Below, piece by piece: positions 16,308 to 34,181 of a DNA stretch of 64,000 bases (its first letter is position 1; the number at the start of each line of letters is the position of its first letter). The position numbers and the translations under genes are program-made. The notes beneath the pieces were generated by a model. It ran no database searches. It worked only from the letters and a program-made list of their open reading frames with translations, and was not told where the DNA came from. This stretch comes from Oceanicaulis alexandrii DSM 11625 (GTDB lineage: Bacteria; Pseudomonadota; Alphaproteobacteria; Caulobacterales; Maricaulaceae), in the NCBI RefSeq assembly GCF_000420265.1, contig NZ_ATUP01000001.1:2046001-2110000 (forward strand), in the 5' to 3' direction.

Positions 16308-16326
16308 AAGTGAACGCCGTTCACTT
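16308..16326. promoter_or_regulatory. Perfect palindromic operator, site 1 of 4
   Basis: AAGTGAACGCCGTTCACTT is a perfect 9+1+9 inverted repeat. It lies 66 bp upstream of the BASS transporter start and 109 bp upstream of the divergent M28 peptidase start. Closely matching sites occur at 27662, 32584 and 34163. The symmetry and length suit a TetR-family dimer. No TetR gene is present in the window. Confidence 0.65.
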
Positions 16327-16392
16327 GTCCGTTTCAGAGGCGAGGGCGGATCGGGACCGCAGACCCGGTCACAGGGGAGGAGACAGCGCGCT

Positions 16393-17328
16393 ATGGACAT
16401 AGCTGCGTTAGACGCCGTGCAGATTGAGCTGGCGCCCGGATCGCAAGTGATCTTGCCGATGCTGCTGGCCGTTTTGATGTTCGCGGTTGCGCTGAACGTG
16501 CATGTGGCGGACTTCGCCATGGTCAAACAGCGCCCCGTCAGGTTTCTGGGCGCCGCGGCGGCGCAAATTCTGGGGTTGCCGCTCGCGACGCTTGGACTTC
16601 TCTATGTATTGAACCCGCCCCCCTCCATCGCGCTTGGGATGATCGTGGTGGCGTGTTGCCCGGGCGGCAATGTCTCCAATTTCTTCACCCATCTGTCGCG
16701 GGGCGACACCGCGCTTTCAGTCTCGCTGACGGCGACCTCCAGCCTCGCCGCCGCGCTTCTGACGCCGATCTCGATCCTGTTTTGGACCTCGCTTTACGCG
16801 CCCGCTGACGCGCTGGTGGATGCGATCGAGGTGTCGCCTATTCCCTTCGTGCTGCAGATGACTGTGTTGCTGGCCGTGCCCCTGGCGGTTGGGATGGGCA
16901 TTGCGCACCGCTATCCGCGTCTGGCTCACTGGCTGCGCCCGGTCTTTCTGGCTGCAGGCCTGTTCGGGCTGGCGGTGATGGTTGTGGGCGGGGTCGCCTC
17001 CAACTGGGCTTTGTTCACCGCGACGGCGGGAACCGTGCTGGTGATCGCGATGATCCACAACGCCGTCGCGTTCGGCGTCGGGACGCTGTCGGCGCGCGCT
17101 CTGCAGTATGACGTGGCGGGACGTCGCTCGGTGACCTTCGAAGTGGGTATCCAGAACACCGGGCTCGGCCTTGTGATCCTGCTCGGCCAGTTTGAAGGCG
17201 TGGGCGGGGCGGCGGCCATCACCGCGCTCTGGGCGGTCTGGCATTTGTTCAGCGGCGGCATGCTCGCCGGGTTTTATCGCGGGCTCGATGCGGTCCGCGC
17301 ACAGAAGAGCGCCCGAACGGCGCCTTGA
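16393..17328 (+). CDS. Bile acid:sodium symporter (BASS) family transporter
   Basis: This 311-residue membrane protein has about nine to ten helices and the BASS family blocks ACCPGGNVSNFFTHLSRGDTALSVSLTATSS and RSVTFEVGIQNTGLGLVIL, which surround the sodium sites. BASS carriers import organic anions (bile acids, pyruvate, pantoate-type acids) with sodium; the substrate here is unknown. The start at 16393 follows GGGGAGGAGA by about 9 bp; the frame is open further upstream, but that extension crosses the palindrome. A D-aminoacylase-like gene follows 26 bp downstream, so the transporter may bring in its substrate. Confidence 0.88.
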   Translation: MDIAALDAVQIELAPGSQVILPMLLAVLMFAVALNVHVADFAMVKQRPVRFLGAAAAQILGLPLATLGLLYVLNPPPSIALGMIVVACCPGGNVSNFFTHLSRGDTALSVSLTATSSLAAALLTPISILFWTSLYAPADALVDAIEVSPIPFVLQMTVLLAVPLAVGMGIAHRYPRLAHWLRPVFLAAGLFGLAVMVVGGVASNWALFTATAGTVLVIAMIHNAVAFGVGTLSARALQYDVAGRRSVTFEVGIQNTGLGLVILLGQFEGVGGAAAITALWAVWHLFSGGMLAGFYRGLDAVRAQKSARTAP

Positions 17329-17354
17329 AACAATGATTTCTACGGGAGGCTTCC

Positions 17355-19139
17355 ATGGCGACTTATGATCTGAAAATCACCGGCGGCATGATCCATGAGG
17401 GCGAGGGCGGCTCACCTTATATTGGCGATGTCGGGATCAAGGCGGGCCGTATCGTTGCGGTGGGCGAGGCGCCGGGCGACGCCGACGAGGTGATCGACGC
17501 CCAGGGCTGCATCATCACGCCGGGCTTTATCGACGTGCACACCCATTATGATGGCCAGGCCACCTGGGACGACCGCATGGAGCCGTCGATCAAGCATGGC
17601 GTGACCACCGCCGTCATGGGCAATTGCGGCGTCGGTTTCGCGCCCGTGCGCGAAAGCGACCATGAGCGCCTGATCAAGCTGATGGAGGGGGTGGAGGACA
17701 TTCCCGGCACTGCGCTCGCCGAAGGGCTGAGCTGGGATTGGGAGAGCTTCCCCGATTATCTCGACGCGCTGGAGAAGACCCCGCGCACCCTCGATGTGGC
17801 GGCCATGGTCGGCCATGATCCGCTCAGGGTTTATGTGATGGATCAGCGCGCCAGCTTTGACCAGCAGGCCAATGACGAGGAAATCGCGAAAATGCGCGAC
17901 CTCGTCTCTGAAGCGCTGGACGCCGGCGCCATCGGCTTCGCCACCGGACGGTCAGATCTGCACCGCACCGCAGATGGCGACTGGACCCCGGCCAGCGAGG
18001 CCACCACCAAGGAACTCACCGGCATCGCCAGCGCCTTCAAGGGCCGCGACCATGGCGTCATCCAGGCCGTCTCCGACTTTGACCTTGAGCGCGACCAGTC
18101 GCGGTTCGAGGAGGAGTGGAAAGTGGTCGAGGAGTATGTCCGCGCCGCCGGCGGTCGCCCCTTCTCCATGTCCCTGATGCAGCGCGACTTCGCGCCGGAT
18201 CAATGGCGTAAAATCCTCAAAGGGCTCGAGGCGCTGGATGAAGAAGGCTACACCGTGCGCGCCCAGGTCGCCCCGCGCGCCATCGGCGTCTTCCTCGGGC
18301 TGCAATGCACCTTCCATCCCTTCATGGGCTTCCCGGCCTATAAGGAGATCGCCGATCTGCCGCTCGATGAGCGCGTGGCGGTGATGAAGACCGACGCCTT
18401 CCGCAAGAAGATCCTCAGCCAGAAATCAGACAAGCTCGCCGGTCCCGGCAGCTCGATCCCGCCCATCGCCGATCTTCTGATCGAAAACATGGAGATGGTG
18501 GCGGGCAAGCTCTTCACCCTGTCGGAAAACCCCGATTACGAGCAGCCGCCTGAGAACGCCATCGGCGCCAAGGCCGAAGCGCGCGGCGTGTCGGTGTGGG
18601 AGGAGCTGTTCGACACGGTGATCGCCCGCGACGGCCGCGAGCTGATCTATCTGCCGATCTATAACTATACCGAGCTGAGCTATGACAATGTGCTGACCAT
18701 GATGCAGCACCCGCTCGCCATTCCGGGCCTGTCTGATGGCGGCGCTCATGTGGGCACGGTCTGTGACGCCAGCTTCCCCAGCTATCTGTTGAGCTACTGG
18801 ACCCGCGACCGGACCCGTGGGCCGCGTATTGCGCCCGAACGCGCGGTGCAGATGCTGACCGGCGACATCGCCGATTATCTGGGCCTGTCAGACCGCGGCC
18901 GGATCAAGCCGGGGATGAAGGCCGACCTCAACGTCATCGACTACCAAAAGCTACGCCTGCACCCGCCGCGCCTGGTCAAAGACCTGCCCGCGGGCGGCCA
19001 GCGCCTTCTGCAGGACGCTGAAGGCTATCGCGCGACAATTGTCTCCGGTGAAGTCGTTGTGCGGGATGATCAGGTGACGGAGGCTCGGCCCGGGCGTCTG
19101 GTCCGCGCCGGGCGACAGGAAGCGCTGGCGGCGGAGTAG
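17355..19139 (+). CDS. N-acyl-D-amino-acid deacylase-like amidohydrolase
   Basis: This 594-residue amidohydrolase-superfamily protein has the D-aminoacylase/dihydroorotase-like pattern: an N-terminal beta-sandwich strand set, the metal motif [12 protein letters not shown] near residue 60, [10 protein letters not shown], and the late [15 protein letters not shown] block. Family members hydrolyse N-acyl-D-amino acids with one or two zinc ions in the cytoplasm. It has a good ribosome site (GGGAGG) and follows the BASS transporter by 26 bp, so import and hydrolysis of an acylated substrate are probably coupled. The true substrate cannot be read from sequence. Confidence 0.82.
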
Positions 19140-19149
19140 AGAAGTGAAT

Positions 19150-19260
19150 CCCCGGCCAAGCGCAGCGCAGAGCCGGGGCCTCCATCAGGATGTGGCGCTT
19201 TTTGTGGAGCGAGGTCCCGGGGCTTCGCTGACGCTCCCCCAGGAGTTCACTCGCTCTGTC
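19150..19260. repeat. Intergenic palindromic repeat region
   Basis: CCCCGGC (19150-19156) pairs with GCCGGGG (19172-19178), and a second imperfect hairpin-forming stretch follows (GAGCG...CGCTC around 19218-19246). The sequence lies between the convergent amidohydrolase and SDR genes and looks like a dispersed REP-type element, perhaps aiding termination in both directions. Confidence 0.4.
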
Positions 19261-19267
19261 TCAGCCC

Positions 19268-20026
19268 CTAACGCACATAGCTTGCGCCATTGACGTCAAA
19301 GGTCGCGCCGGTGGCGCTTTTGCACGCGCCGGACAGCAGGAAGGCGCAGAGGCGGCCCAGCTCATCCGGGCTCGCCATATCGCCATAGGGGACTTCTGAG
19401 AGGGCGGCCTTGCGGTCGTCTGGGGCTTGCGGCGCCATTTCCGTGTCGATCCAGCCTGGCGAGATGGCGTAAGCGAGCAGCCCCCGGCCAGAATAGGCGC
19501 GCGCCAGCGTCTTGATCATCGCGATCAGCCCGGCTTTTGACGCGGCGTAGGCGGGATGGTCCGCATCGTCGCCACGATGCGCGGCGCGAGAGCTGATCGC
19601 CACCAGCGATCCGCCCTGCGCGCTGTCCACCCAATCCTGCGCCGCGCACCGGGCGAGATCGGCGCAACTTTGCAGATTGATCTGAAGCGTGCGCGCCCAG
19701 TTCTGCCGCCAGATGTCGGCGGGGTCGTGGACGTTGGACGCTTCAAAAACGCCGTGATTGAGCACCAGGCCGTGGATCGGGCCGCCAGCGAGGGATTTCG
19801 CCTCGTTCCAGGCGGGTTCGGCGGCGTCCGGGGCTGAGAAATCGGCCTGCACCAGACCGATGGCCTGATCGCCCAGCTCGCTGGCCATGGCCTTGGCGGC
19901 TTCGGTGTTGCGGGCATAGCCCAGGATCACCTTGCCGCCGGCTTCGGCGATCTGGCGGGCGATGCCGGCGCCGGCGCCGCGGGAGGCGCCGGTGACGAAA
20001 AGGGTCTGGTTCTCAAGGCTGATCAT
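19268..20026 (-). CDS. SDR-family NAD(P)-dependent oxidoreductase
   Basis: This 252-residue classical short-chain dehydrogenase/reductase carries the cofactor motif TGASRGAGAGIA near residue 12, NHG near residue 90, catalytic Ser in ISSRAAH, and YAASK holding the catalytic Tyr and Lys. The C-terminal GATFDVNGASYVR is typical of the FabG-like branch. It starts 8 bp after the penicillin-acylase gene and forms an operon with it. The substrate is unknown; a hydroxy- or keto-acid released or used with the acylase is possible. Confidence 0.87.
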   Translation of the reverse strand: MISLENQTLFVTGASRGAGAGIARQIAEAGGKVILGYARNTEAAKAMASELGDQAIGLVQADFSAPDAAEPAWNEAKSLAGGPIHGLVLNHGVFEASNVHDPADIWRQNWARTLQINLQSCADLARCAAQDWVDSAQGGSLVAISSRAAHRGDDADHPAYAASKAGLIAMIKTLARAYSGRGLLAYAISPGWIDTEMAPQAPDDRKAALSEVPYGDMASPDELGRLCAFLLSGACKSATGATFDVNGASYVR

Positions 20027-20034
20027 GGCGGGTC

Positions 20035-22350
20035 CTATTGCGGCGTCAGGGTCAGCACATGGCTGCCTTCGGGCGCGGTTTCAACGGCCCAGTCATCCCG
20101 GATCTCGAAATACTCGCCCGCCGCCCAACGCGGGGCGAGGTCGCCATGATGGTCCGAGAGCGGGTGGCCCGACTGGCCCGGCGCGAACATGTACAGCGAG
20201 TTGTTGAGGTCTGACAAATCATAGATCGCCCGCAGCGAGGCGGCGTGGAAGACATCATAACTGCCTGAGTCATAGCTGAAATGCGCCACATTGATCGTCG
20301 CGCCGTCGCCGGGGACGGGCACGCGGTTGGCGAACATGGACCCGATCAGCGGCAGGGAATCAAACGGGTGGTCGAAATCGGCCACATGCATGTCGCCCCA
20401 GCGCCAGCTGTTCATGTCAGGCCCGAAGGCGTCCGCGGTTTCCGCCATGGCGGCGTCGAGCGCCAGCCCGGCGGTGATGGAGCAGCTCTCCACCGCATCC
20501 GTCCGCACGTCATCGCACCAGGCCGAGGCTTCACCGGCCAGAACCTCTTCCAGGAAGGCGCGGCGCGGCTGGTTGAAGGCGGAGGCGAGCGTATCAAGCT
20601 CATCGTTCCAGATTGCGCCGGACAAGACGCGCAGCCAGGCCGAATAGATCAGCGCTTCTGGCGCATCCATGTCCAGCGCGCCGTCCCAGGCTTCCAGCCG
20701 CGCCAGGGCTTCCGCTCCCAGCTGGCTTTCAGGCTCGGACCCCAGCAGCACGGGCAACAGACGCAGGGCCTGCTCGCTGGTCACATCCATTTGCAGGGCG
20801 GCGAAGCTTTCCAGCGTATGACGGTCGCGCGCGATGAGCTCACGCTCGATCCGCGGCGCACGATAGGTCGCGTACGAGCCCGGCAGCGGATACGGATAGT
20901 CTGGCCCCGCCACCAGATTATTGCCCGATGCGATGAACCCGCCTTCGGGGTTTCGCACGCGCGGCAGCTCTTCAAACGGGATAAAGCCCGTCCACTCGCC
21001 GCTCTCATCGCGGATCGGCAATAGACCCGCCGTCGTGTACCCGATCGTGCCGTCCACGCTGGCGAAATGCATGTTTTGCATGGGGGCGGTCCAGCCGCGG
21101 CCCGCTTCGACAAATTCGTCAAAGGTCTGCGCCTGCATGATCGCCAGGGTGGCGTCCGCCACGCGGTTGCCCGGCGCGGTCACAGTGGAGCGTCGCACCA
21201 CGATGGCGTCCTCGTCAAAGCCGCGCAGATCAAACCATTCCGGGTCCAGCACGGGGCCGTCGCGGGTTTCCTCGACGGTCAGCTCATAAGGGTCGGAGCG
21301 GCCCTTGATCTGGATGGTTTCGGTGCGGCTTGTGATCTCTTCGGCTGAGCGATCGCGTTCGAGAATGTCGATCACGTCAAAGCCGGTATTGGTGAAGCCC
21401 CAGGCGGCGTGGGCGTTGCGCCCCAGAATGACGAAGGGCGCGCCCGGCACGGTGCCGCCGATGACCGGTCCGTAAGACAGGTTCAGCCGCACATAGTACC
21501 AGATCGCCGGGGTGCTCAGGCCCAGATGGGGGTCGTTCGCCAGCAATGGGCGTCCGGTTTCAGAGCGCTCGCCAGAGACCACCCAGGCGTTCGAGCCTGG
21601 CTGGTTGTCGGGTTGCGCGCTCGGCTGGGCGGGCTCGCTCAGGGGCAGCGTCTGCACCTCGCCGAAGCGGGCGCGCATATCCTCGGCCTTGAGCATGGTC
21701 GGCGCCCAGTCGGGGAAGTTCAGGGTGAACTGCGCGAGCTGCTCGGCGGACAGAATATCGTCGAGCAAGGCGCGATCCATGTCAGCGCCCGCCCCAGCGG
21801 CCAGATCATGGGCCAGCAGCACGACAATCGCCGCGCTGTCTTCCAGGCTCCACGCTTCAGGCGCGGTGCGAAGCACAGCGTATTCAGGCGCGACCGAGCC
21901 CTCGGCCAGGCGCGCGTTCACGCCGGAGATATAGGCCTGCATCATTGCGCGGGTGTCTGCGGATGCGTTGGCGACGATCTCTTCGGTCAGGCGACGGAAG
22001 CCATAGGTGCGGGTCTGGGCGTCGGCGCGCAGATACTCCTCGCCAAACAAGGCGGAGAGTTCGCCGCGCATATAGCGCCGGGCCATGTCCATCTGGAAAA
22101 AGCGTTCACTGGCGTGCACATAGCCCAACGCCGCCATCACATCGGCGTCGCTGTCGCCAAAAATGTGGGCGATGCCGTTGGCGTCGCGCACAACGTGTGC
22201 GGGGGAATCCAGCACGGAAAGCGTGACCTCGCCGGACTGGCGGGGCTTGGAGGCGTGAAACCGCTCCACCATCCAGGCGCTGACGCCCAGAACGGTGATC
22301 AGAACCAGCGCTATCGCTGCGAATACTATGCGGATGATCCAGGTTTTCAT
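20035..22350 (-). CDS. Penicillin acylase family (S45) N-terminal nucleophile hydrolase
   Basis: This 771-residue precursor is of the penicillin G acylase/acyl-homoserine-lactone acylase type. An N-terminal hydrophobic segment (residues 5-27) may be a signal anchor. The alpha-chain motif FGDSDADVMAALGYVHASERFFQMD is present. Autocatalytic cleavage should expose Ser253 in GSNAWVVSG as the beta-chain nucleophile, followed by ANDPHLGL. Such enzymes hydrolyse amide bonds of acylated compounds in the periplasm; AHL quorum-sensing signals are one possible substrate. GGGGAGG precedes the start. The SDR gene follows in the same operon. Confidence 0.9.
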   Translation of the reverse strand: MKTWIIRIVFAAIALVLITVLGVSAWMVERFHASKPRQSGEVTLSVLDSPAHVVRDANGIAHIFGDSDADVMAALGYVHASERFFQMDMARRYMRGELSALFGEEYLRADAQTRTYGFRRLTEEIVANASADTRAMMQAYISGVNARLAEGSVAPEYAVLRTAPEAWSLEDSAAIVVLLAHDLAAGAGADMDRALLDDILSAEQLAQFTLNFPDWAPTMLKAEDMRARFGEVQTLPLSEPAQPSAQPDNQPGSNAWVVSGERSETGRPLLANDPHLGLSTPAIWYYVRLNLSYGPVIGGTVPGAPFVILGRNAHAAWGFTNTGFDVIDILERDRSAEEITSRTETIQIKGRSDPYELTVEETRDGPVLDPEWFDLRGFDEDAIVVRRSTVTAPGNRVADATLAIMQAQTFDEFVEAGRGWTAPMQNMHFASVDGTIGYTTAGLLPIRDESGEWTGFIPFEELPRVRNPEGGFIASGNNLVAGPDYPYPLPGSYATYRAPRIERELIARDRHTLESFAALQMDVTSEQALRLLPVLLGSEPESQLGAEALARLEAWDGALDMDAPEALIYSAWLRVLSGAIWNDELDTLASAFNQPRRAFLEEVLAGEASAWCDDVRTDAVESCSITAGLALDAAMAETADAFGPDMNSWRWGDMHVADFDHPFDSLPLIGSMFANRVPVPGDGATINVAHFSYDSGSYDVFHAASLRAIYDLSDLNNSLYMFAPGQSGHPLSDHHGDLAPRWAAGEYFEIRDDWAVETAPEGSHVLTLTPQ

Positions 22351-22477
22351 GTTGGGCCTCCCCAAGGGCCAAGTCGTCACTCTAAATGCGCCATAGATCT
22401 GGCGCCCCGTTCTTCAGGCGGAACATTCTTCATTAAGTTGTGTCAGTTATCGTCACAAAAAAATTCAAGGGTGTCCC

Positions 22478-24693: not shown

Positions 24694-24704
24694 GAGGCTG
24701 TCTC

Positions 24705-26312
24705 CTAGCTCGCACGGATCATATCGGCGGCGCGTGTGGCGATCATGATGGTGGGCGCATTGGTGTTGCCGCCGACTATACGCGGCATGACGGACGCATC
24801 CACCACGCGCAGGCTTTTCACGCCGCGCACCCGGCATTGCGGATCGGTGACAGAGAGCGCTCCGCCCCCCATCGCGCAGGTTGAGGTGGGATGGTAGAGC
24901 GTCTCGGCACGTTGGCGGACTTCATCAGTCAGACTGGCCCGGCCCGCGCGGGGGTCTGCAGGCAGGTCAAGATGATCAAACTCGCCATCGAACGCGCTGC
25001 TGAGCAGCAGGTCGCGCGCGATCTCCAGGCAGTCCGTCATCACCTCAACATCTTCCTCATGGTCGAGATAGTTGGGATCAATGCGGATCGGCGCGCGCGG
25101 GTCCGCACTGTCCAGCCTGAGCCGTCCGGTGCTTTGCGGATAGAGGTGACAGGCGTGCAGGCTGATCCCGTGTCCTGTCAGGGTGTCACGACCGTGCGGG
25201 CTGGCCAGCGCCGGGATGAACACCAGCTGGATGTCGGGTAGATCCCGCGCCCGGCTGGAGCGCACAAACCCGCAGCCCTGGACCGGGTTGACGGTGAACT
25301 TGCCGGTGCCGGTTAGCGCCCACTGCATCACATCACGGGCCGTGGCGGGAAATTTGCGCGCTGAATAGCCAATCGAGGTCGCTGATTTTGTTCGGGCGCG
25401 CGCAAGAATGTCGAGATGATCCTGAAGGTTTTCACCGACGCCGGGCGCATCGTGTTCGACGCTGATTCCGTGCTCGCGCAAATGGTCGGCCGGGCCGATG
25501 CCTGACAGCATCAGAAGATGGGGCGAATTGATCGCCCCGCCTGACAGGATCACTTCGTGCTTGGCGGTGACGGTGCGCATCTCGCCGTCGGTCTCGATCA
25601 GCACGCCTTGGGCTTCACCCTTCTCGATCACGATGCGATGGGCCAGGGCGCCGGTGACGACGGTCAGATTGGGGCGGTTCATTGCGGGTTTGAGAAAGGC
25701 GTCCGCCGCAGACCAGCGTTTGCCGCCTTTTTGGGTCACCTGATAAGGGCCGAACCCTTCCTGCCGAGCGCCGTTATGATCCGGATTGTCAGGAATCTGG
25801 CGCTGGCGGCAGGCCTCGAAATAGCGCTCGGTCAGCGGATTGAGCGGACCAATGGTCTTCACGTTCAGCGGGCCGCCCTGACCGTGAAAGGGCGCGCCAT
25901 GGTTTTCGTTGTTTTCGACAGACTTGAAGGCCTCCAGCGCCGCATCGCCATTCCAGCCTTCGGCGCCGTACGTGCTTTCCCAATCGTCGTAATTCTCTAG
26001 CGCGCCGCGCATGTAATGCATGGCGTTGATCGAAGAGGAGCCGCCCAGCGCCTTGCCGCGCGGCCAGTAGAGCTTGCGGTCGCCGAGATTTTTCTGCGGT
26101 TCGGTCCAGTAATCCCAGTTGATCGCCGGGTTGGTGATGGCGAACTGCAGCAGCATGGGCGTCTTGATGACGGCCTTGTTGTCGGATCCGCCAGCTTCCA
26201 GAACGCAGACGGTCACGTCGCGATCCTGGCTGAGTCGGTCGGCGAGCACGCATCCCGCCGAGCCGGCCCCGACGATCACATAATCAAACTCCATGTCGTC
26301 TGCGCGGCTCAT
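24705..26312 (-). CDS. GMC-family choline/alcohol dehydrogenase-like flavoprotein
   Basis: This 535-residue FAD enzyme of the glucose-methanol-choline family carries the dinucleotide motif DYVIVGAGSAGCVLADRLS at the start and the first GMC signature WPRGKALGGSSSINAMHYMRG. The substrate domain follows, and the C-terminal end is LRVVDASVMPRIVGGNTNAPTIMIATRAADMI. The branch includes choline dehydrogenase and the alcohol dehydrogenase AlkJ of alkane degraders. Its start overlaps the upstream hydrolase stop as ATGA at 26309-26312, with GGAGAG as ribosome site. With the neighbouring aldehyde dehydrogenase it should convert a primary alcohol to the acid. Confidence 0.9.
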   Translation of the reverse strand: MSRADDMEFDYVIVGAGSAGCVLADRLSQDRDVTVCVLEAGGSDNKAVIKTPMLLQFAITNPAINWDYWTEPQKNLGDRKLYWPRGKALGGSSSINAMHYMRGALENYDDWESTYGAEGWNGDAALEAFKSVENNENHGAPFHGQGGPLNVKTIGPLNPLTERYFEACRQRQIPDNPDHNGARQEGFGPYQVTQKGGKRWSAADAFLKPAMNRPNLTVVTGALAHRIVIEKGEAQGVLIETDGEMRTVTAKHEVILSGGAINSPHLLMLSGIGPADHLREHGISVEHDAPGVGENLQDHLDILARARTKSATSIGYSARKFPATARDVMQWALTGTGKFTVNPVQGCGFVRSSRARDLPDIQLVFIPALASPHGRDTLTGHGISLHACHLYPQSTGRLRLDSADPRAPIRIDPNYLDHEEDVEVMTDCLEIARDLLLSSAFDGEFDHLDLPADPRAGRASLTDEVRQRAETLYHPTSTCAMGGGALSVTDPQCRVRGVKSLRVVDASVMPRIVGGNTNAPTIMIATRAADMIRAS

Positions 26313-27592
26313 TGCGGCTCTCCGTCCTGAGACTGAACCTCGCCTTCCATCGGAGGCGTCATGGGGGCTGTGGACGAAGCAGGCGTCAGCGGCGCGACGG
26401 TCTCGGCGATGGCGCGAAAGACGGCTGTCATTTCTACGTTCCGCTCGCCCCAGTCCGCATCGCCGGCATTCTGGGCGATCACCAGATCACGGTTGCGATC
26501 CATCCAGATATACTGGCCGAACACCCCGGCGGCGTAGAATTCACGGTCATAGTTTTCCGGGATCCAGAAGTGCAGTCCATAGCCGCGATGGGCGTAGCGG
26601 CTGGCGCCGGGCTCATGCGACGGCGTGGGCGGCGTGGACACCAGATCCACCCAGCCTTCCGGCAACAGGCGTTCGCCGTTCCAGACGCCGTCCTGCAGGT
26701 AGAGCTGGCCGAGGCGCGCATAATCCTCGCTGCTGGCCTGCAGGCAGCAATACCCGATGGCGACCCCTTCAGGGCCCGGCTTGTGCTGCAGCCAGGTCGC
26801 CGGATCGCTCATGCCGAGTGGTTCCCACAGCTCCCGCTGCATGATTTCGGCGAGGCGGCCCTCATAGACGCCACGCACGACCGCCGACAGCACATGGGAG
26901 TTGGGGCTGATATAATGAAAATCCTCGCCCGGCTCACGATCGCGCTCGATCAGAGCAATCATGTCGTCGGGATTGCGGCGCATGATGAAGGCGTTGAAAA
27001 AGAGCGGCCGCACATCGGAGGGGGCGTCGGCGCTATATTCCTCGTTAAACGCCATGCCCGACGACATCATCAGGAGATGGCGCAGGCTGGTCGCGCCATA
27101 ATCAGTCCCGGCAAATTGCGGCGCATACCGGTCCACCCGGTCGTCCAGGCTCTCGATCAGGCCTTCATGCAGCGCCTTGCCGATCAAGGTGGCGACAAAG
27201 GACTTGCCCACAGACCAGGATGTGAAACGTGACTGGGCGTCCGCCTCATACGCATAGGTCTGGGCGATCACCTCGCCGTCAGACAGCACGGTCAAACCAG
27301 TGACTTTGGCTTCGGCGAGGTATTCGGCGAGCGTTTTGGTTTCGCCTTGCCATTCATAAGTGATGTCGAGCGATTGAACGTCGCGAGGGAAAGGCGAGGG
27401 CGCGACGGCGTCGATCCCGGTGCTCGGCAGGAATTCGTCCATGCGCTGATAGGTCAGCGGATACTGGTCCGGGTCGTCCAGCGACCGGATCTTGGCCGGC
27501 GCATAATCGGACCAGGGTCTGTAATACCAGCCTGCGCCCACGAGCCCGAGCAAAACCAACGCGCCCACTACGGCTGTCAGGAAACGCTTCAT
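26309..27592 (-). CDS. Beta-lactamase-fold serine hydrolase/esterase, membrane anchored
   Basis: This 427-residue protein has an N-terminal hydrophobic anchor (MKRFLTAVVGALVLLGLVGAGWYY) and a beta-lactamase/esterase domain. The SxxK nucleophile motif is FTSWSVGKSF; the YxN-like motif may be in HYISPNSHV; HRGYGLHFW occupies the KTG-like region. The C-terminus is rich in Pro, Thr and Glu. Members act as esterases, D-aminopeptidases or peptidoglycan-related hydrolases. As the first gene of an operon with alcohol and aldehyde dehydrogenases, ester hydrolysis yielding an alcohol is the most economical reading. GGGGAGAG precedes the start, and two palindromes lie upstream. Confidence 0.85.
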   Translation of the reverse strand: MKRFLTAVVGALVLLGLVGAGWYYRPWSDYAPAKIRSLDDPDQYPLTYQRMDEFLPSTGIDAVAPSPFPRDVQSLDITYEWQGETKTLAEYLAEAKVTGLTVLSDGEVIAQTYAYEADAQSRFTSWSVGKSFVATLIGKALHEGLIESLDDRVDRYAPQFAGTDYGATSLRHLLMMSSGMAFNEEYSADAPSDVRPLFFNAFIMRRNPDDMIALIERDREPGEDFHYISPNSHVLSAVVRGVYEGRLAEIMQRELWEPLGMSDPATWLQHKPGPEGVAIGYCCLQASSEDYARLGQLYLQDGVWNGERLLPEGWVDLVSTPPTPSHEPGASRYAHRGYGLHFWIPENYDREFYAAGVFGQYIWMDRNRDLVIAQNAGDADWGERNVEMTAVFRAIAETVAPLTPASSTAPMTPPMEGEVQSQDGEPQ

Positions 27593-27604
27593 TTAATCTC
27601 TCCC

Positions 27605-27616: not shown

Positions 27617-27661
27617 CCCGGTCTCGCCGCAATCTGCGGGGCGGGCAAATCAGTTAGCCTT

Positions 27662-27680: not shown

Positions 27681-27728
27681 AGTGAGCGCCAGTCAAAACC
27701 GGCTGTCCATGTCTGCGCGGGCGCGCGG

Positions 27729-28877
27729 TCACTCCGCCGGTGTCAGCCGCAAAACCTGACCGTCCGGGGATTCCGCCAGCAGCCAGATTGCGCCATCCGG
27801 ACCATTGAGCACCTGTCGGATTCTTTGCCCGCGCTCGGCGAGCAGGCGCTCTTCGCCAACCACGACGCCGTCTTCCAGATCCAGCCTGTGCAGCGCCTGG
27901 CCCGCCAGCGCTGACACCAGCAGATCGCCACGCCAGTCGGCGAAGAGGTCGCCGTCATAAAGCGCCATCCCGCTGGGTGCGATTGAGGGCGTCCACACCC
28001 ATTCCGGCGCGTCAAAGCCTTCATGGTCGAAGAAAGGCGAGATGCGCGCGCCATTGTAATCCAGGCCCATGGTGGCGATCGGCCAACCGGCGTTGGCGCC
28101 GGCGTTCAGCGCGTTCAGCTCGTCCCCGCCTTGCGGACCGTGCTCATGGGTCCAGATCGTACCCGTTGCGGCGTCCAGCGCGATGCCTTGCATATTGCGA
28201 TGGCCATAGCTGTAGACATAGGCCGCGGCCCCGCCTTCATCGGCGAAGGGATTGTCGGTCGGCGCCGAACCGTCCGTGTTCAGCCGCAGCACGGCGCCCA
28301 GATGATTGCTGCGCACCTGGGCCTCTTCGCGGTAGGCGAAGCCTTCTCCGGCGGTCATTAAAAGCGTGCCGTCCGGCAAAAAAGCCAACCGTGCGCCATA
28401 ATGAGCGCTTGTGCTGCGCAAGGGGTCGGCGCGGAAAATCGTTTCGCCATCCACCAGACGGTCCGCTTCGAGCCGGGCGCGATAGAGCGCGGGCGTATTG
28501 GCGTCCGCCGTTCCGGAGGCATAGCTGAGATAAACGACGCCCGAAGTTTCAAAGTCCGGGCTCAGCGCCAGGTCGAACAGTCCGGCCTGCCCTTCGGCGA
28601 AGACGTCATCCGGGCCGCCCGGCACATCGCTCAGCACGCCATCGCGGAGGTGTTTAACGCCGCCATTGCGTTCGCTGATCAACGCGGACCCATCGGGCAG
28701 GAAGGCCATGTCCCAGGGGGTGAGCAGGCCGTCCGCGATCAGTTCGACCTGATAGCTTGCAGGGTCGAGATCATCCGCAGGCGGCGCCGCTTCAGGCGCT
28801 TGGGAACAGGCGCTGACGGCGCCGAGAACAAGCGCGAGCCCGGTCGGGGCGATGACGGATTGGATCAGCCGAATCAT
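27729..28877 (-). CDS. PQQ-dependent soluble aldose sugar dehydrogenase-like lipoprotein
   Basis: This 382-residue lipoprotein has the signal MIRLIQSVIAPTGLALVLGAVSAC, with lipidated Cys24. The rest is a six-bladed beta-propeller of the soluble glucose/aldose sugar dehydrogenase family (E. coli YliI/Asd type): GLLTPWDMAFLPDGSALISERNG, EGQAGLFDLALSPDF, SYGHRNMQGIALD and WTHEHGPQGGDELN. The family uses pyrroloquinoline quinone and calcium to oxidise aldoses in the periplasm. The start at 28877 has GAGGGAA upstream; the longer frame has no signal peptide. It is divergent from a small membrane protein gene. No pqq synthesis genes are in the window. Confidence 0.85.
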   Translation of the reverse strand: MIRLIQSVIAPTGLALVLGAVSACSQAPEAAPPADDLDPASYQVELIADGLLTPWDMAFLPDGSALISERNGGVKHLRDGVLSDVPGGPDDVFAEGQAGLFDLALSPDFETSGVVYLSYASGTADANTPALYRARLEADRLVDGETIFRADPLRSTSAHYGARLAFLPDGTLLMTAGEGFAYREEAQVRSNHLGAVLRLNTDGSAPTDNPFADEGGAAAYVYSYGHRNMQGIALDAATGTIWTHEHGPQGGDELNALNAGANAGWPIATMGLDYNGARISPFFDHEGFDAPEWVWTPSIAPSGMALYDGDLFADWRGDLLVSALAGQALHRLDLEDGVVVGEERLLAERGQRIRQVLNGPDGAIWLLAESPDGQVLRLTPAE

Positions 28878-28977
28878 GATGGTTCCCTCACGCGTGTGTT
28901 TGCGGCACTCTCGCTTTAATCGCGAGTTCAAAGCACTATGAGCGCTATGACCGGTGCGCGCAAAGGGGGAATGGGCC

Positions 28978-29433
28978 ATGACGATATTGCGGGTTTTCGG
29001 CGCCTATCTGGCGACAGTGCTGGTTCTGGTGGCCTTGGCCGTCATAGCGCAAAGCCTGTTCGTACTGGCGGGGTTGATGGCGGTCGGCGCGGAAATCGGC
29101 GCAGCGGATGCACTCTCCATGGTCGTTGATGACCTGACCGGATTGGGGCCGCTCTATGCGATCTTCATTGCGCTCGGGTTGGCGATCGCCCTGCCGGTCG
29201 CCGCGCTGGCCGGGCGCGTGCTGCCCGTGCCGCGCGGATGGGTGTTCAGCGCGGCTGGGCTGGTGTGCATGCTGGTGATGCTGACCTTGATGAAAGAGGT
29301 GTTTTTCGGGGTGCAGGTTATTGCGGGCGCGCGCAGCATGGCGGGGCTGCTCACCCAGGCGGTCATGGGCGGCCTAGCGGGGGTGGTCTTCGTCCTTCTG
29401 ACCGCGCCGCCGCGGTCCAGACACACAGCATAA
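28978..29433 (+). CDS. Four-helix membrane protein, unknown function
   Basis: This 151-residue hydrophobic protein has about four transmembrane helices (about residues 5-35, 55-80, 85-105 and 120-142) and few polar loops. I recognise no family. The ATG at 28978 follows AGGGGGA; an in-frame non-ATG start 24 bp upstream is less likely. It is divergent from the PQQ-type sugar dehydrogenase gene. Confidence 0.6.
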   Translation: MTILRVFGAYLATVLVLVALAVIAQSLFVLAGLMAVGAEIGAADALSMVVDDLTGLGPLYAIFIALGLAIALPVAALAGRVLPVPRGWVFSAAGLVCMLVMLTLMKEVFFGVQVIAGARSMAGLLTQAVMGGLAGVVFVLLTAPPRSRHTA

Positions 29434-29757
29434 AAGACTGATTCCTAAGCCGAACGATGGCGGCACGGTCTCAAGGCGCATGATGCGGCGATGAATGCCT
29501 GTCATGCCTGATAGCATGATCTATTGTGCGCAGCATAAAATCATTATCTCAAAAAACATAAGCTATCTCAGGTATATAAGGATAATGCTGCACTGCACGC
29601 TATGGCTGCGCCTGTGCTGTTTGCGCAACGCTTGGCTGGTCTTGAGAAGAAGTTTGCATGACAAAATGATCAAAGCCTGCATAAGCTAAGCGTAAGTGCG
29701 GACAGCGATCCTACACAGAATATCGCGACGCCAGACCTATCAGGGGAGGAGACCTGT
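29434..29757. other. 324-bp leader before TonB receptor with an AT-rich core
   Basis: No convincing gene is present. Bases 29520-29600 are much richer in A and T than the surroundings (stretches such as CATAAAATCATTATCTC and GGTATATAAGGATAATG), and GCATGAT occurs twice (29478 and 29514). This is probably the promoter and regulatory region of the receptor gene at 29758. I could not fix a promoter or a named operator such as a Fur box. Confidence 0.4.
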
Positions 29758-32490
29758 ATGAACCGTTTGACCAAAGCAGCCGTTCTCGGGGCGACGGCGC
29801 TCGCTGCGGGCGTTGTCGCTGCGCCAGCGCTGGCGCAGCAGCCGGACGTGATCACCGTCACCGCGCAAAAACGCGAACAGACCTTGCAGGAAACGCCGGT
29901 ATCTGTGGCAGTTGTCACCGATACCGCGATCCAGCAATCGCAAATCCGCGACGCTGCGGATCTGCAAACCCTCGTCCCGTCTCTGCGCGTGGCCGAGTTC
30001 GCCTCCTCCACCAATACCGAATTCAGTCTGCGCGGCATCGGTACGTCGAGCTTCAACCCAGGGCTTGAGCCCTCTGTGGGCGTGTTTGTGGACGGCGTGT
30101 ACCGCCCGCGTGCAGGCGCAGCGATCAACGATCTGTTGTCCATCGAGCGCGTTGAAGTCATCCGCGGTCCGCAATCGACGCTGTTCGGCCGCAACACGCC
30201 GGCGGGCGTGGTGAGCTTCATCACCAAGGAGCCCGAGTTCGAACTGGGCGGTGACGCAGAAGTCACCTTTGGCGAGTTCGGCCAGTTCGTGGCCAAGGCC
30301 ACGGTCACCGGCCCCATTGTTGAAGACGTGCTGGCTTTCCGTCTGGACGCCACCACCCACACCAATACCGGCTACCTGGACAATGTTTCGCCAGTGGCGC
30401 AGCGCCAGGAGCTCAACAACCGCGATCGCCAGTCCTATCGCGGTCAGCTGATGTGGTATCCGACTGACGCGACCGAAGTGCGTATCATCGCCGATATGGG
30501 CGTCATTGATGAAAATTGCTGCGCGGCGCCGTTCGGATATTACGACCCGATCGACCAGGCCGCGATCATCGCGCTGGGCGGCACGGCGCTGCCCGCCGAT
30601 CCCTTTGATGGTCAGATGGCGGTCGACGGCAATGTGAACACTCAACTCGATACGGCCGGCCTGTCCGCCCAGATCGATCATGAGTTTGACGGGTTCACCT
30701 TCACCTCGATCACCGCGTATCGCACCTATGACGAATCCCAGAACATCGATGCGGACTTCTCCGATATCGATCTGTTGGGCGCTCGCAATATCGATAACGA
30801 ATACAACAGCTTCACCCAGGAATTGCGCTTCACCTCAAATGGCGGCCAATTCATCGACTGGATGTTTGGCGGGTTCTATTACAAGAACGAACTCGAGTTC
30901 AATCAGCGTCTCGTCTATGGCGCGGACACCAAGGCGTTCTTCGACCTGGCGTCTGCCGCGCAAGTGGCCGATCTGGCTGCAGCCTTTGGTCTGCCGGCCG
31001 GCACGGGCGGCGTCACGCTGACCGAGTTCCTGGTGGGTGCGAACAACCAGCTAGGCGTCAACAATGTTCCCTTGCTGCCTGCCGGCGGTTATCTGCAGGA
31101 AGGCGATGCGCTCGAGCAGGAGAACTACCAGTACGACACCACGTCCTGGTCCGCCTTCGGTCAGTTTGACATCAACTTCACGGATCGTCTGACCCTGACG
31201 ATTGGCGGCCGCTACACCGAAGAAGACAAGGAGATGGAGACCCGGATCAATATCAATGATCCGATCTCGGCTCTGAGCTTCACCTCTCTGGGCGCCAATT
31301 TGCGCCTGCCTGAGGCGTCGCTTTGCCCGTCCTTCCCGGACGGCAATTCGTGCCCGTTCCTGCTGACCACGGTTCTGGCGCAGCAAGCCGCAGGCGATCC
31401 GACCCTTGCGGCGCAGCTGGAAGGCGCGCTTCAGGCCTCCGGCATTCCTGGCGCGACGCTCGCCAATCCGTTCGTGGTATATGATCCGACCGTGGCGGCT
31501 TTTCTGGCCAACACGCCGTTCAACCTGCTCAACGGCTTCGCTGCGTTCCAGAATTTTGGACCCGTGGACGCCAGCCAGTATCCGACGTCTCGTTCGGACG
31601 ACAATTTCTCCTACAACGCCATCCTCAGCTATGATGTGACCGATACGTTCAACATCTATGCGAGCTATTCCACCGGCTTCAAACCGGGCGGGTTCAACCT
31701 GTCCTATGAAGCGGCGGAAACCGGCATTTTCGAGTTCGAGGATGAAACCGCCTCGTCCTGGGAGTTGGGCGCGAAAGGTTCGCTTCTGGACGGCTCGCTC
31801 GTCTATGCGGTCACCTACTTCAACCAGGAAATCGAAGACTTCCAGTCCGAGGCCTTTGTGGGCACGGGCTTCGCGCTCGACAACGCCGGCTCCATCGAAG
31901 TCAGCGGCATCGAGTTCGATTTCAGCTATGCGCCGACCGACCGGTTGTTCTTCACTCTGGGCGGCACCTATCTGCTGGATGACAAGTTCGGCGAATATCC
32001 CTTCGCCCCTTGCCCGGACAGCTCGCCGCTGTTCGGCCCGGTCTGGGATCCGGCCGATCCGACCTTCGCCAATTGTAACGCCCCGCGGGTCAATGATCAG
32101 GGTCAGTCCGGCACGTTCAATGACCTGTCTGGCGTCGAGCGCGGCAATCCTGAGCTGGTGGCGTCCTTCACGGGCACCTACACCCACCCGGTCAATGATC
32201 GCCTGGACCTGATCCTGCGCGGTGAAGCCCAGCACACGTCGGACTTCAATCTGGTGGCGAGCCTGGATCCGCGGGCGATCGCCAATCAGGACGCCTTCAC
32301 CCTGTACAATGCGTCTGTGACGCTGTCGGCGGCGGATGAAAGCTGGGCGCTGCAGTTCTGGGGCCGTAACCTCACCGAGGAAGACTACGCCAAGGGCGGC
32401 TTCCCGTCGGTGGGCTATCTGGGATCGAGCTTCAACATCTATCCCGGCGACCCGCGCACCTATGGCGTGACCCTGCGCGCCCGCTTCTAG
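29758..32490 (+). CDS. TonB-dependent outer-membrane receptor
   Basis: This 910-residue receptor has a signal peptide ending near APALAQQ, a TonB-box-like ITVTAQKREQTLQETPVSV, a plug domain with RGIGTSSFNPGLEPSVGVFVDGVYRPR and VEVIRGPQSTLFGRNTPAGVV, and a C-terminal 22-strand barrel ending in ARF. The pattern is that of the large family of receptors in Caulobacter-like and sphingomonad bacteria that take up plant, sterol or aromatic compounds rather than classical siderophore receptors. It has a very strong ribosome site (GGGGAGGAGA), an AT-rich leader and a terminator. The substrate is unknown; the nearby GMC, desaturase and di-iron genes suggest a lipophilic compound. Confidence 0.93.
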   Translation: MNRLTKAAVLGATALAAGVVAAPALAQQPDVITVTAQKREQTLQETPVSVAVVTDTAIQQSQIRDAADLQTLVPSLRVAEFASSTNTEFSLRGIGTSSFNPGLEPSVGVFVDGVYRPRAGAAINDLLSIERVEVIRGPQSTLFGRNTPAGVVSFITKEPEFELGGDAEVTFGEFGQFVAKATVTGPIVEDVLAFRLDATTHTNTGYLDNVSPVAQRQELNNRDRQSYRGQLMWYPTDATEVRIIADMGVIDENCCAAPFGYYDPIDQAAIIALGGTALPADPFDGQMAVDGNVNTQLDTAGLSAQIDHEFDGFTFTSITAYRTYDESQNIDADFSDIDLLGARNIDNEYNSFTQELRFTSNGGQFIDWMFGGFYYKNELEFNQRLVYGADTKAFFDLASAAQVADLAAAFGLPAGTGGVTLTEFLVGANNQLGVNNVPLLPAGGYLQEGDALEQENYQYDTTSWSAFGQFDINFTDRLTLTIGGRYTEEDKEMETRININDPISALSFTSLGANLRLPEASLCPSFPDGNSCPFLLTTVLAQQAAGDPTLAAQLEGALQASGIPGATLANPFVVYDPTVAAFLANTPFNLLNGFAAFQNFGPVDASQYPTSRSDDNFSYNAILSYDVTDTFNIYASYSTGFKPGGFNLSYEAAETGIFEFEDETASSWELGAKGSLLDGSLVYAVTYFNQEIEDFQSEAFVGTGFALDNAGSIEVSGIEFDFSYAPTDRLFFTLGGTYLLDDKFGEYPFAPCPDSSPLFGPVWDPADPTFANCNAPRVNDQGQSGTFNDLSGVERGNPELVASFTGTYTHPVNDRLDLILRGEAQHTSDFNLVASLDPRAIANQDAFTLYNASVTLSAADESWALQFWGRNLTEEDYAKGGFPSVGYLGSSFNIYPGDPRTYGVTLRARF

Positions 32491-32515
32491 GCGATGCGCA
32501 CTGAGTAATGGATCA

Positions 32516-32546
32516 ACGGCGCTGGAGTTTTCCGGCGCCGTTTTTC
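32516..32546 (+). terminator. Rho-independent terminator after TonB receptor
   Basis: ACGGCGCTGG (32516-32525) pairs with CCGGCGCCGT (32532-32541), a 10-bp stem with one G:T pair and an AGTTTT loop, followed by TTTTC. Confidence 0.85.
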
Positions 32547-32583
32547 TTTGTGAGGCCCCCTTGCTTTACCCCTTGCTTTTTTG

Positions 32584-32602
32584 AGGTGAACAGCGTTCAA
32601 TT
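32584..32602. promoter_or_regulatory. Palindromic operator, site 3 of 4, overlapping promoter region
   Basis: AGGTGAACAGCGTTCAATT keeps both TGAAC and GTTCA halves of the site at 16308 with a different centre. It ends 6 bp before the ATG of the small protein at 32609, close enough to block transcription or initiation. A 12-bp direct repeat (CCCCTTGCTTT at 32557 and again at 32569-32570) lies just upstream and may hold the promoter. Confidence 0.6.
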
Positions 32603-32608
32603 TTTGGC

Positions 32609-33082
32609 ATGAATGAAAGCATGACAGATGTTCTCGCCTTAATCGGGGCGGCGTTTGGCATCGGCCTGATCATTTTGCTGAACATGGCCCTTGGCTGGAC
32701 ACGCTTGCGTCTGAACACCGAAGGTGAGGCGCAACGCTTTCTCAAGCGCGACGTGATGGGTTTCCAGGTCGGGGGCCAACAGGTTTTGACCCCTGACCGG
32801 TGCGGTTATCTGTGTCTTGAGGCCGATGGCGGGCGCGTGGGCCTGGTTCTGGCGCGCGGCGATAATGCTGTCGTGCGCGCGCTACGCCCTGGGGAGGTGC
32901 GCTCGGTCCAGGTGAGTGGGACGACCCTGACGCTGACGCTTTATGATTACACCTTGCCGCGTGCGGTGCTGGAGCTTGGCCGGGACGGTCAGGCGACAGA
33001 CTGGGCGGACCGTCTGCAAGACTTTGTGCGTGCGCCAGGCGGCGCACCCGGAAATGAGGCGCGTTATGCCAAATCTGCCTGA
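32609..33082 (+). CDS. Single-span membrane protein, unknown function
   Basis: This 157-residue protein has one N-terminal membrane helix (residues 8-28) and a soluble domain of about 120 residues that looks beta-rich (VLTPDRCGYLCLEADGGRVGLVLARGDN and TLTLTLYDYTLPRAVLELG). I do not recognise the family. It overlaps the sterol-desaturase-family gene by 17 bp, so the two proteins are translationally linked and may form a membrane complex. A TetR-type palindrome sits directly upstream. Confidence 0.7.
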   Translation: MNESMTDVLALIGAAFGIGLIILLNMALGWTRLRLNTEGEAQRFLKRDVMGFQVGGQQVLTPDRCGYLCLEADGGRVGLVLARGDNAVVRALRPGEVRSVQVSGTTLTLTLYDYTLPRAVLELGRDGQATDWADRLQDFVRAPGGAPGNEARYAKSA

Positions 33083-34004
33083 TCCGATCTTATGGGCCAT
33101 CCCCGGCTTCATCCTGTTGGTCATCGCCGAGATGATTTACGGGCGGATGACAGGCAGGACCCGGTTTGAGCCCCGCGACACGGCCGGCAGTCTGATTATG
33201 GGGCTGGGCAATACGGTGTCGGGCGTGCTTCTGGGCGGGATCGTTGTGGCCTGGTTCGTCTTCGTCGAACAGTTTGCGATCCTGGACATTGGCTGGGCCT
33301 GGTACTGGTTCGTCATCGCCTTCGTGCTGGATGATTTCGTCTATTACTGGAGCCATCGCTGGGCGCATACCGTGCGCTGGTGGTGGGCGGACCATGTGGT
33401 TCATCATTCCAGCCAGCACTACAATCTATCGACCGCTTTGCGGCAGCCTTGGCTGAATCCGCTGACCCTGAAATTTATCTTTCTGGGCAGCTGGCTGGTC
33501 TTGATCGGTTTCCCGCCGGCCATGATCGCCTTCGTGGCGGCGTTCAACCTGATCTATCAATTCTGGATCCACACCGAGGCGATCAAACGCTTGCCCGGGC
33601 CTGTGGAATGGCTGATGAACACGCCCAGCCATCACCGGGTCCACCATGCCACCAATCCGCGCTATCTGGACCGCAATTACGGGGGGGTCTTCATCATCTG
33701 GGATCGGATGTTCGGCACGTTCGAGCCTGAAACCGACGAAGAAGAGATCCGCTATGGCATCGTTCGCAATCTGGGCACCCATAACCCGCTGACGATCTGT
33801 CTGCATGAATGGTGGGGCATCATCAAGGATGTCCGCACGGCGCGCTCGCCACGCGAAGTGCTGGGCTATTGGCTTGGACCGCCGGGATGGTCGCCGGATG
33901 GCAGCCGGGACACCTCCGCCATGCTGAAGGCCCGCTGGCTGGAAGAACAAGGGGGCGACGTTTCATCGCGGTCTGACAAGCATCCGCCTGTCGCCGCCGA
34001 ATAG
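33066..34004 (+). CDS. Sterol desaturase / fatty-acid hydroxylase family protein
   Basis: This 312-residue membrane di-iron oxygenase has about four helices and the three histidine clusters of the family: HRWAH, HVVHHSSQHYN and HHRVHHATN, with another histidine in the following loop. These bind two irons and use O2 to hydroxylate or desaturate a lipid, sterol or carotenoid at the membrane. The start at 33066 has GAGG 6 bp upstream and overlaps the preceding gene. Bacterial members include C-4 sterol oxidases and ornithine-lipid or carotenoid hydroxylases; the substrate here is unknown. The shared palindrome upstream links it to the di-iron protein at 34279. Confidence 0.9.
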   Translation: MPNLPDPILWAIPGFILLVIAEMIYGRMTGRTRFEPRDTAGSLIMGLGNTVSGVLLGGIVVAWFVFVEQFAILDIGWAWYWFVIAFVLDDFVYYWSHRWAHTVRWWWADHVVHHSSQHYNLSTALRQPWLNPLTLKFIFLGSWLVLIGFPPAMIAFVAAFNLIYQFWIHTEAIKRLPGPVEWLMNTPSHHRVHHATNPRYLDRNYGGVFIIWDRMFGTFEPETDEEEIRYGIVRNLGTHNPLTICLHEWWGIIKDVRTARSPREVLGYWLGPPGWSPDGSRDTSAMLKARWLEEQGGDVSSRSDKHPPVAAE

Positions 34005-34162
34005 GCGTGCAGTGCAGCAAGCAAGAAGAGTGATATTGATCAACGCACAGCGTGGATCGCCTTGGAATTCTATGCTGCTATGCGGCGAAATTAATTCCCT
34101 TTTTTATTGAAAATGCCCGGTCTTGTGCTGGACACAGAGCGGCCTCTTGATCCAAAGTCGAG

Positions 34163-34181
34163 AAGTGAACGCCGTTCATTG
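34163..34181. promoter_or_regulatory. Palindromic operator, site 4 of 4
   Basis: AAGTGAACGCCGTTCATTG is identical to the perfect site at 16308 over its first 16 bases. It lies 97 bp upstream of the di-iron protein start at 34279, in the 274-bp gap after the sterol-desaturase gene. Confidence 0.6.

What the first reader, a model, noticed from the sequence alone, without database searches (positions are those of the whole stretch)
16308..34181. A shared palindrome marks four operons: a possible undescribed TetR-type regulon
Four 19-bp sites share the core GTGAACGCCGTTCAC: 16308 (AAGTGAACGCCGTTCACTT, perfect), 34163 (AAGTGAACGCCGTTCATTG), 32584 (AGGTGAACAGCGTTCAATT) and, weaker, 27662 (GAGTGAACACCTTTCAGAG). 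Each lies 6-97 bp upstream of a separate unit: BASS transporter/deacylase; esterase-GMC-aldehyde dehydrogenase; small membrane protein-sterol desaturase; ferritin-like di-iron protein. Seen directly: the repeats and their positions. Inference: one dimeric regulator controls uptake and oxidation of a lipid or sterol-like compound. From memory, the form resembles operators of lipid-sensing TetR proteins such as DesT/FabR.
Basis: partly seen in the sequence, partly recalled or inferred. Interest (0 to 1): 0.75.

Follow-up and report, generated by a model that had tools for sequence, protein, structure and literature searches.

The report
TetR regulon joining efflux and oxidation
A repeated 19-base palindrome in this marine bacterium marks a real, conserved set of co-regulated genes, and its likely reader is a TetR-type repressor encoded beside a drug-type efflux pump elsewhere in the genome.

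Summary
The motif (AAGTGAACRNYGTTCACTT) occurs 8 times in the 3.02-Mb genome with at most one core mismatch, against 0 for the reversed control. All 8 lie 8-99 bp before a likely start codon. The weak 27662 site is real too: it is kept in 14 of 14 TetR-positive same-genus genomes, own genome included.

In 41 genomes, its strong ortholog and the perfect motif occur in exactly the same 23. In 299 genomes of the order, 89 of 90 TetR-positive genomes have the motif, against 32 of 209 others. Ortholog promoters examined in TetR-lacking genomes carry no site.

The regulon joins the pump (and TolC in most relatives examined) to a Baeyer-Villiger-type monooxygenase, SDR, thioesterase, Coq4-like, AurF-like and fatty-acid-hydroxylase-like proteins, a serine hydrolase and a BASS transporter. 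Repression, ligand and role are inferred. DesT/FabR membership was not supported. My literature searches found no description. A new regulon of a known kind.

The parts
16308..16326 (.). Operator 1, perfect 19-bp palindrome AAGTGAACGCCGTTCACTT, between divergent genes (BASS transporter + and M28-type peptidase -)
   Evidence: perfect sites at the orthologous place in relatives, e.g. L092, L098, L101, L111, L112
16393..17328 (+). BASS (SBF) transporter; start codon 68 bp after the operator core
   Evidence: PF01758, 92.9 bits
17355..19139 (+). Amidohydrolase (Amidohydro_3), probably co-transcribed with the transporter
   Evidence: PF07969; order kept in relatives L092, L111, L112
14477..16324 (-). 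M28-type peptidase ORF (label by resemblance, not by a profile search); divergent from BASS, so operator 1 may serve it too. The listed GTG start lies inside the operator; the real start is probably further in
   Evidence: divergent neighbour with the site between in L098, L101, L111, L112
27662..27680 (.). Operator 2, weak in this genome (core GTGAACACCTTTCAG)
   Evidence: kept in 14 of 14 TetR-positive same-genus genomes; footprint
26309..27592 (-). Serine hydrolase (Beta-lactamase / esterase type), start 71 bp from operator 2
   Evidence: PF00144, 125.4 bits
24705..26312 (-). GMC oxidoreductase, overlapping the hydrolase by 4 bp (same operon)
   Evidence: PF00732, PF05199
23260..24837 (-). 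Aldehyde dehydrogenase ORF (start codon uncertain)
   Evidence: PF00171
32584..32602 (.). Operator 3, AGGTGAACAGCGTTCAATT
32609..33082 (+). Small membrane protein, no Pfam match; start 8 bp after the operator core (or 20 bp if the second ATG is used)
32943..34004 (+). Fatty-acid hydroxylase / sterol desaturase family protein (ORF; start codon probably further in)
   Evidence: PF04116, 110.4 bits; weak match to OlsE (54.9 bits, cut-off 475)
34163..34181 (.). Operator 4, AAGTGAACGCCGTTCATTG
   Evidence: present at 14 of 14 TetR-positive same-genus orthologs
34279..35403 (+). AurF-like di-iron (ferritin-like) protein; start 99 bp after operator 4
   Evidence: PF11583, 78.7 bits, cut-off 29.6

Best explanation
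The palindromes are operators of one homodimeric TetR-family repressor, encoded at C1:2601175-2601906 of the same genome between a nitroreductase-family gene (divergent) and a downstream membrane-fusion protein and MexK-like RND pump. Without inducer it sits on AAGTGAACRNYGTTCACTT in the promoters of the pump and of about ten scattered operons and keeps them low; a lipophilic or otherwise toxic compound would bind its C-terminal domain, release it, and switch on export (RND pump) together with modification (BVMO-type monooxygenase, SDR, hydrolases, thioesterase, AurF-like and fatty-acid-hydroxylase-like oxygenases). Shown computationally: the sites, their promoter position, their conservation, and their strict association with this TetR gene. 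Inferred: that this TetR binds them, that it represses, that a ligand induces, and the nature of the ligand.
For: 8 sites with at most 1 core mismatch against 0 in the control, all 8 placed 8-99 bp before a likely start. A site lies in the TetR-pump gap of the own genome (AAGTGAACGCTGTTTGCTT, 58 bp before the fusion protein). All 23 of 23 strong TetR orthologs have a site with at most 2 mismatches at their locus (12 perfect, 2 with one, 9 with two mismatches), and 0 of 7 weaker TetR relatives do. In 41 genomes the 23 with a strong ortholog are the 23 with a perfect motif. In 299 genomes: 89 of 90 TetR-positive against 32 of 209 TetR-negative have a perfect motif, mean 2.4 against 0.18 per genome. 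Site at AurF-like orthologs in 18 of 18 TetR-positive Maricaulaceae genomes holding one (14 of them same-genus, own included) and in 0 of 4 TetR-negative genomes; serine-hydrolase site in 14 of 14 same-genus and 0 of 2 TetR-negative; TolC site in 17 of 22 TetR-positive and 0 of 8 TetR-negative. 70 of the 80 best named TetR loci have the site, 71 with one frame-broken locus. The helix around DYSPAALYKYF is nearly invariant in the 23.
Against: No binding or expression data. Related genomes are not independent, so Fisher-type numbers overstate. 8 of the 80 named TetR loci have no recognisable site (L158, L160, L176, L181, L188, L190, L191, L193), mostly Robiginitomaculum MAGs, and a ninth (L221) only a degenerate one. 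32 TetR-negative genomes have a perfect motif, including 5 of 10 TetR-negative genomes of family f2; some may be missed genes, since one search scored at most 9 candidates per genome. The pump genes travel with the TetR gene, so co-occurrence cannot by itself separate the TetR from another factor read by the same genomes. TolC in the own genome and its two nearest relatives has no site. Two of the nine 19-mer matches in the genome are not at promoters.
Confidence: 0.82

Rival explanations
1. The sites are operators of a different regulator (another of the genome's TetR proteins or another family), and the TetR-pump operon is only one more target.
For: The genome has 18 TetR_N domains. Some TetR-negative genomes keep the motif. 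The site is usually not perfect at the own TetR locus (2 core mismatches).
Against: The strong ortholog and the perfect motif coincide in 23 of 23 and are both missing in 18 of 18 of 41 genomes. In the four Hyphomonadaceae loci the perfect site is just upstream of tetR itself, the autoregulatory place. Scanning the 18 TetR loci with up to 2 core mismatches found a promoter-placed, motif-like site only at this one (other 2-mismatch hits in L019 and L025 lack the RNY centre and GTTCAC half).
Confidence: 0.12
2. The protein is a lipid homeostasis regulator of the DesT/FabR kind, controlling synthesis or desaturation of membrane lipids, with the pump as a side target.
For: Thioesterase, fatty-acid hydroxylase family and Coq4-like genes are in the regulon.
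Against: No fatty-acid synthesis or desaturase operon was seen beside the sites; no chain named DesT or FabR among the 60 PDB sequences at E <= 1e-6; no NCBIfam model reaches its cut-off (best 36.4 bits against 150; PsrA and FadR models 24 bits); the oldest, most widespread targets seen are pump and TolC.
Confidence: 0.1
3. Chance similarity of four short palindromes.
For: With two mismatches allowed the core is only twofold over control.
Against: 8 against 0 and 9 against 0 over control in the genome; conservation of position across genomes while flanks change.
Confidence: 0.01

Closest known systems
MexL / MexJK of Pseudomonas aeruginosa
   Same: TetR-type repressor encoded next to a two-gene pump operon (fusion protein + RND) that uses an outer-membrane protein encoded elsewhere; MexK is the nearest RND pump among solved structures (E 8e-85). 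That MexL represses mexJK, and that MexJK uses OprM or OpmH, is from passages of PMC9323910.
   Different: Here the operator is also at many distant catabolic genes and (in most relatives examined) at TolC; operator sequence of MexL was not compared; orthology of the two repressors was not tested.
TipR / AcrAB-NodT of Caulobacter crescentus
   Same: TetR-type repressor of an RND pump in the same wider bacterial group, with an inverted-repeat operator and few further targets.
   Different: TipR consensus is WTGaGWMtGAWC and it binds 4 chromosomal places (PMC10754441, section 9 read); the present operator is AAGTGAACRNYGTTCACTT with at least 10 supported promoters. The Caulobacteraceae-like family f3 genomes have no strong ortholog.
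DesT / FabR (lipid-sensing TetR proteins)
   Same: TetR fold; palindromic operator; GTGAAC-like half-site (recalled).
   Different: No membership evidence; gene content and locus differ.
KstR / KstR2 (steroid catabolism regulators of actinobacteria)
   Same: TetR proteins with multi-operon regulons; both appear among the PDB hits of the profile (E 1e-9 to 1e-7).
   Different: Hits are at general TetR level, not orthology; no steroid-ring degradation cluster was seen at the sites.

Membership tests
TetR family of transcriptional regulators | N-terminal TetR_N helix-turn-helix domain | tested here: met
   PF00440, 54.9 bits against cut-off 24; TetR_C_33 C-terminal domain 34.2 against 26.8
TetR family of transcriptional regulators | Binds a palindromic operator, often at its own locus | tested here: inconclusive
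   Palindrome at the TetR locus in 23 of 23 orthologs and 71 of 80 named loci; binding itself not testable here
TetR repressors of RND pumps (AcrR/MexL type, by neighbourhood) | Gene adjacent to fusion protein and RND pump genes | tested here: met
   L113: TetR 5176-5910, HlyD_3 6010-7146, ACR_tran 7151-10255
TetR repressors of RND pumps (AcrR/MexL type, by neighbourhood) | Represses the pump and is released by pump substrates | not testable with these tools
   Needs expression and binding assays
DesT/FabR | Sequence similarity to DesT/FabR | tested here: not met
   None named so among 60 PDB sequences at E <= 1e-6; no NCBIfam model over its cut-off (I do not know whether NCBIfam 20 holds a DesT/FabR model)
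DesT/FabR | Controls desaturase or fabAB genes | tested here: not met
   Genes beside the own-genome sites are others; the fatty-acid hydroxylase family protein is the nearest in kind
TipR | Operator WTGaGWMtGAWC | tested here: not met
   Operator here is AAGTGAACRNYGTTCACTT; TipR consensus from PMC10754441

The most novel reading that the evidence does not exclude
A pump repressor has been turned into a global 'export or oxidise' switch: an ancestral TetR regulon of only an RND pump and TolC (as in the Hyphomonadaceae loci seen) has been widened in Maricaulaceae, by spread of one operator, to about ten operons for monooxygenation, ester and thioester cleavage, di-iron oxidation, lipid hydroxylation and BASS transport, so that one lipophilic signal, perhaps an algal sterol- or oxylipin-like compound, triggers export and chemical disarming together.
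Probability: 0.3. Interest if true: 0.65.

Novelty: new member of a known kind. Interest (0 to 1): 0.5.

Why it matters
It gives a whole, testable regulon with a named candidate regulator in a group of marine alphaproteobacteria for which my searches of the held literature found no such regulon. It assigns about ten genes of vague annotation (Coq4-like, AurF-like, fatty-acid hydroxylase family, BVMO-type, class II aldolase, BASS) to one response, which is a strong hint about their shared function. Comparing families (few sites beside the pump and TolC in Hyphomonadaceae, several to many in Maricaulaceae) makes it a good case for watching how a local repressor gains a large regulon.

Tried and rejected
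Chance repeats: rejected by whole-genome controls and by conservation. DesT/FabR membership: not supported; passages of PMC3462791 did not give a DesT operator in the text that I could compare. TipR: operator differs. Further two-mismatch matches in the genome: I fetched 9 stretches (L042-L050). C1:208330, 796521, 941460, 2158827 and 2127031 lie inside open frames away from starts, C1:573698 lies in a flagellin cluster, and C1:1099377, 603333 and 2365701 are promoter-placed candidates. Of the two extra 19-mer matches, C1:519991 is not before a gene start and C2:312926 is inside an ORF. A loose literature search (023 papers) returned noise. Sigma-70 scan around operator 1 found no promoter-like site, which says little for this group.

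Not done: structure prediction and fold search; structure prediction was busy four times. No metagenome or viral collections were searched. The listing was capped (counts whole), the output was cut in the middle, so some relatives' sites were not seen, and one search scored at most 9 TetR candidates per genome and did not list 184 of the genomes without a match. The TetR-positive set used a cut-off of E 1e-30 chosen after seeing a gap between 1.6e-31 and 1.1e-21; with 1e-20 the figures become 90 of 95 and 31 of 204 (arithmetic). The counts were copied by hand from the two listings.

Full report
WHERE. The window is C1:2046001-2110000 of a 3,018,426-base genome in 4 contigs. Its genus (g1) includes G007, whose contig of 3,168,988 bases and TetR position agree with Oceanicaulis sp. 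HTCC2633; Oceanicaulis is in Maricaulaceae. Family f2 includes a genome agreeing with Henriciella marina (G033, contig of 235,840 bases), so I read f1 as Maricaulaceae and f2 as Hyphomonadaceae; that naming is inference from contig lengths.

THE SITES. In the whole genome GTGAACNNNGTTCAC occurs 8 times with at most one mismatch; the reversed pattern occurs 0 times. With two mismatches it is 89 against 44, so the loose class is mostly noise. The 19-mer AAGTGAACRNYGTTCACTT within 3 mismatches gives 9 against 0; 7 of these 9 are at the promoters described here, 2 are not. In 57 sites with at most one core mismatch from the named loci, the centre is R at position 9 in 57 of 57 and Y at position 11 in 57 of 57, although the search pattern left these free (the sites are from related genomes).

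THE GENES (own genome; start codons chosen by eye; distances; families). Core matches with at most one mismatch: BASS transporter then amidohydrolase (68 bp); small membrane protein then fatty-acid hydroxylase family protein (8 bp); AurF-like di-iron protein (99 bp); FMO-like/BVMO-type monooxygenase with a carboxylesterase gene just upstream (43 bp); SDR (34 bp); class II aldolase, followed on the same strand by an unknown ORF, a membrane-fusion protein and a 1044-aa RND-like ORF (56 bp); acyl-CoA thioesterase family (18 bp); Coq4 family (77 bp). Weaker: fusion protein of the TetR-pump locus (58 bp), serine hydrolase-GMC-aldehyde dehydrogenase (71 bp), MFS transporter (53 bp) and arylesterase (50 bp). 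The last two are candidates only; a relative's MFS gene (36% identical) has a perfect site 42 bp before its listed start (L071).

THE REGULATOR. Reading perfect-site neighbourhoods in relatives showed a recurrent TetR gene next to a nitroreductase family gene, a fusion protein and an RND pump. Its own-genome ortholog is at C1:2601175-2601906, with the site AAGTGAACGCTGTTTGCTT between it and the pump. Of 41 genomes, 30 have some TetR match at E <= 1e-10; 23 of these are strong (E <= 2.5e-39) and 7 weak (E >= 2.7e-18). The 23 strong ones are exactly the 23 genomes with a perfect motif. All 23 strong TetR loci have a site with at most two mismatches (12 perfect); 0 of the 7 weaker loci that I scanned do. 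In 19 Maricaulaceae loci the site is between tetR and the pump; in 4 Hyphomonadaceae loci it is before tetR. A profile scan of named genomes returned the best 80 of 220 relatives: 70 of 80 have the site at the TetR gene, 37 of them perfect; one more was hidden by a frame break, one is degenerate, and 8 have none.

WIDER TEST. Over 299 genomes of the order, 89 of 90 TetR-positive genomes (E < 1e-30) have at least one perfect motif against 32 of 209 without; means 2.4 and 0.18 per genome. By family: f1 37 of 37 against 5 of 23; f2 50 of 50 against 5 of 10. The f2 remainder is against a perfect rule, or reflects missed or lost genes. Relatedness inflates any probability here.

CONSERVATION AT ORTHOLOGS. 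AurF-like gene: site in 14 of 14 TetR-positive same-genus genomes and in 4 of 4 other TetR-positive f1 genomes with an ortholog; none in 4 of 4 TetR-negative genomes (G017, G032, G038, G040); none in two f2 genomes whose matches are only 36-37% identical. Fusion protein: 18 of 18 scorable f1 TetR-positive loci; G003 could not be scored because the contig breaks; 0 of 4 f2 loci (their site lies before tetR) and 0 of 1 TetR-negative. TolC: 17 of 22 TetR-positive, 0 of 8 TetR-negative; absent in the own genome, G007, G014, G016 and G019 (30 of the 38 genomes with a match were fetched). In the promoter alignments of 14 genomes, the operator is the longest conserved block while the flanks have diverged.

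HOW IT MOST LIKELY WORKS. Established for the TetR family (general knowledge): homodimer on a palindrome, repression by occlusion, release by a ligand bound in the C-terminal domain. By analogy with MexL (passages of PMC9323910) and TipR (section 9 of PMC10754441), the local pump operon would be the main target. New here is the breadth. BVMO-type monooxygenase, esterase and SDR form a familiar series for ketones (ketone to ester to alcohol; recalled), and in one relative the monooxygenase and SDR genes are adjacent and share a site (L083). So I think an inducer that is lipophilic or carbonyl-bearing is likely, and that export and modification are induced together. The BASS transporter and amidohydrolase fit less neatly. 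The closest solved pump is MexK; the monooxygenase's nearest solved relatives are Baeyer-Villiger enzymes, but the match covers mainly its N-terminal half; the AurF-like protein has no close solved relative.

KNOWN OR NEW. Searches for the operator strings gave 0 papers; for Oceanicaulis with TetR and regulon, 5 papers, judged from the listing as unrelated; for TetR with RND efflux and BVMO, 0; for Maricaulis/Hyphomonas with TetR and efflux, 0. Only an open-licence library was searched. The NCBIfam models do not name this TetR. I file it as a new member of a known kind: a TetR efflux repressor with a large, previously undescribed regulon.

Noticed in passing
L039:482-6480 (C1:335482-341480): The class II aldolase with a site is followed on the same strand by an unknown ORF, a membrane-fusion protein and a 1044-aa RND-like ORF, so a second pump may be under the same operator.
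   Followed up: partly
L043:4334, L047:3702, L044:4378: Two-mismatch sites 50-90 bp before an MFS transporter, an arylesterase-family gene and an S9 peptidase: candidate extra members.
   Followed up: partly
L158, L160, L176, L181, L188, L190, L191, L193: TetR relatives, mostly in Robiginitomaculum MAGs, with no recognisable copy of the operator at the locus: possible operator turnover.
   Followed up: no
G004 (1.7 Mb, same genus): A genome half the usual size, given as 91% complete, that lacks the TetR gene, the perfect motif, and all the target orthologs searched.
   Followed up: no
window 14477-16324: A divergent M28-type peptidase ORF shares operator 1 with the BASS operon, an arrangement kept in several relatives.
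   Followed up: partly
window 29758-32490: A TonB-dependent receptor lies directly upstream of operator 3; no operator at its own start was seen.
   Followed up: no
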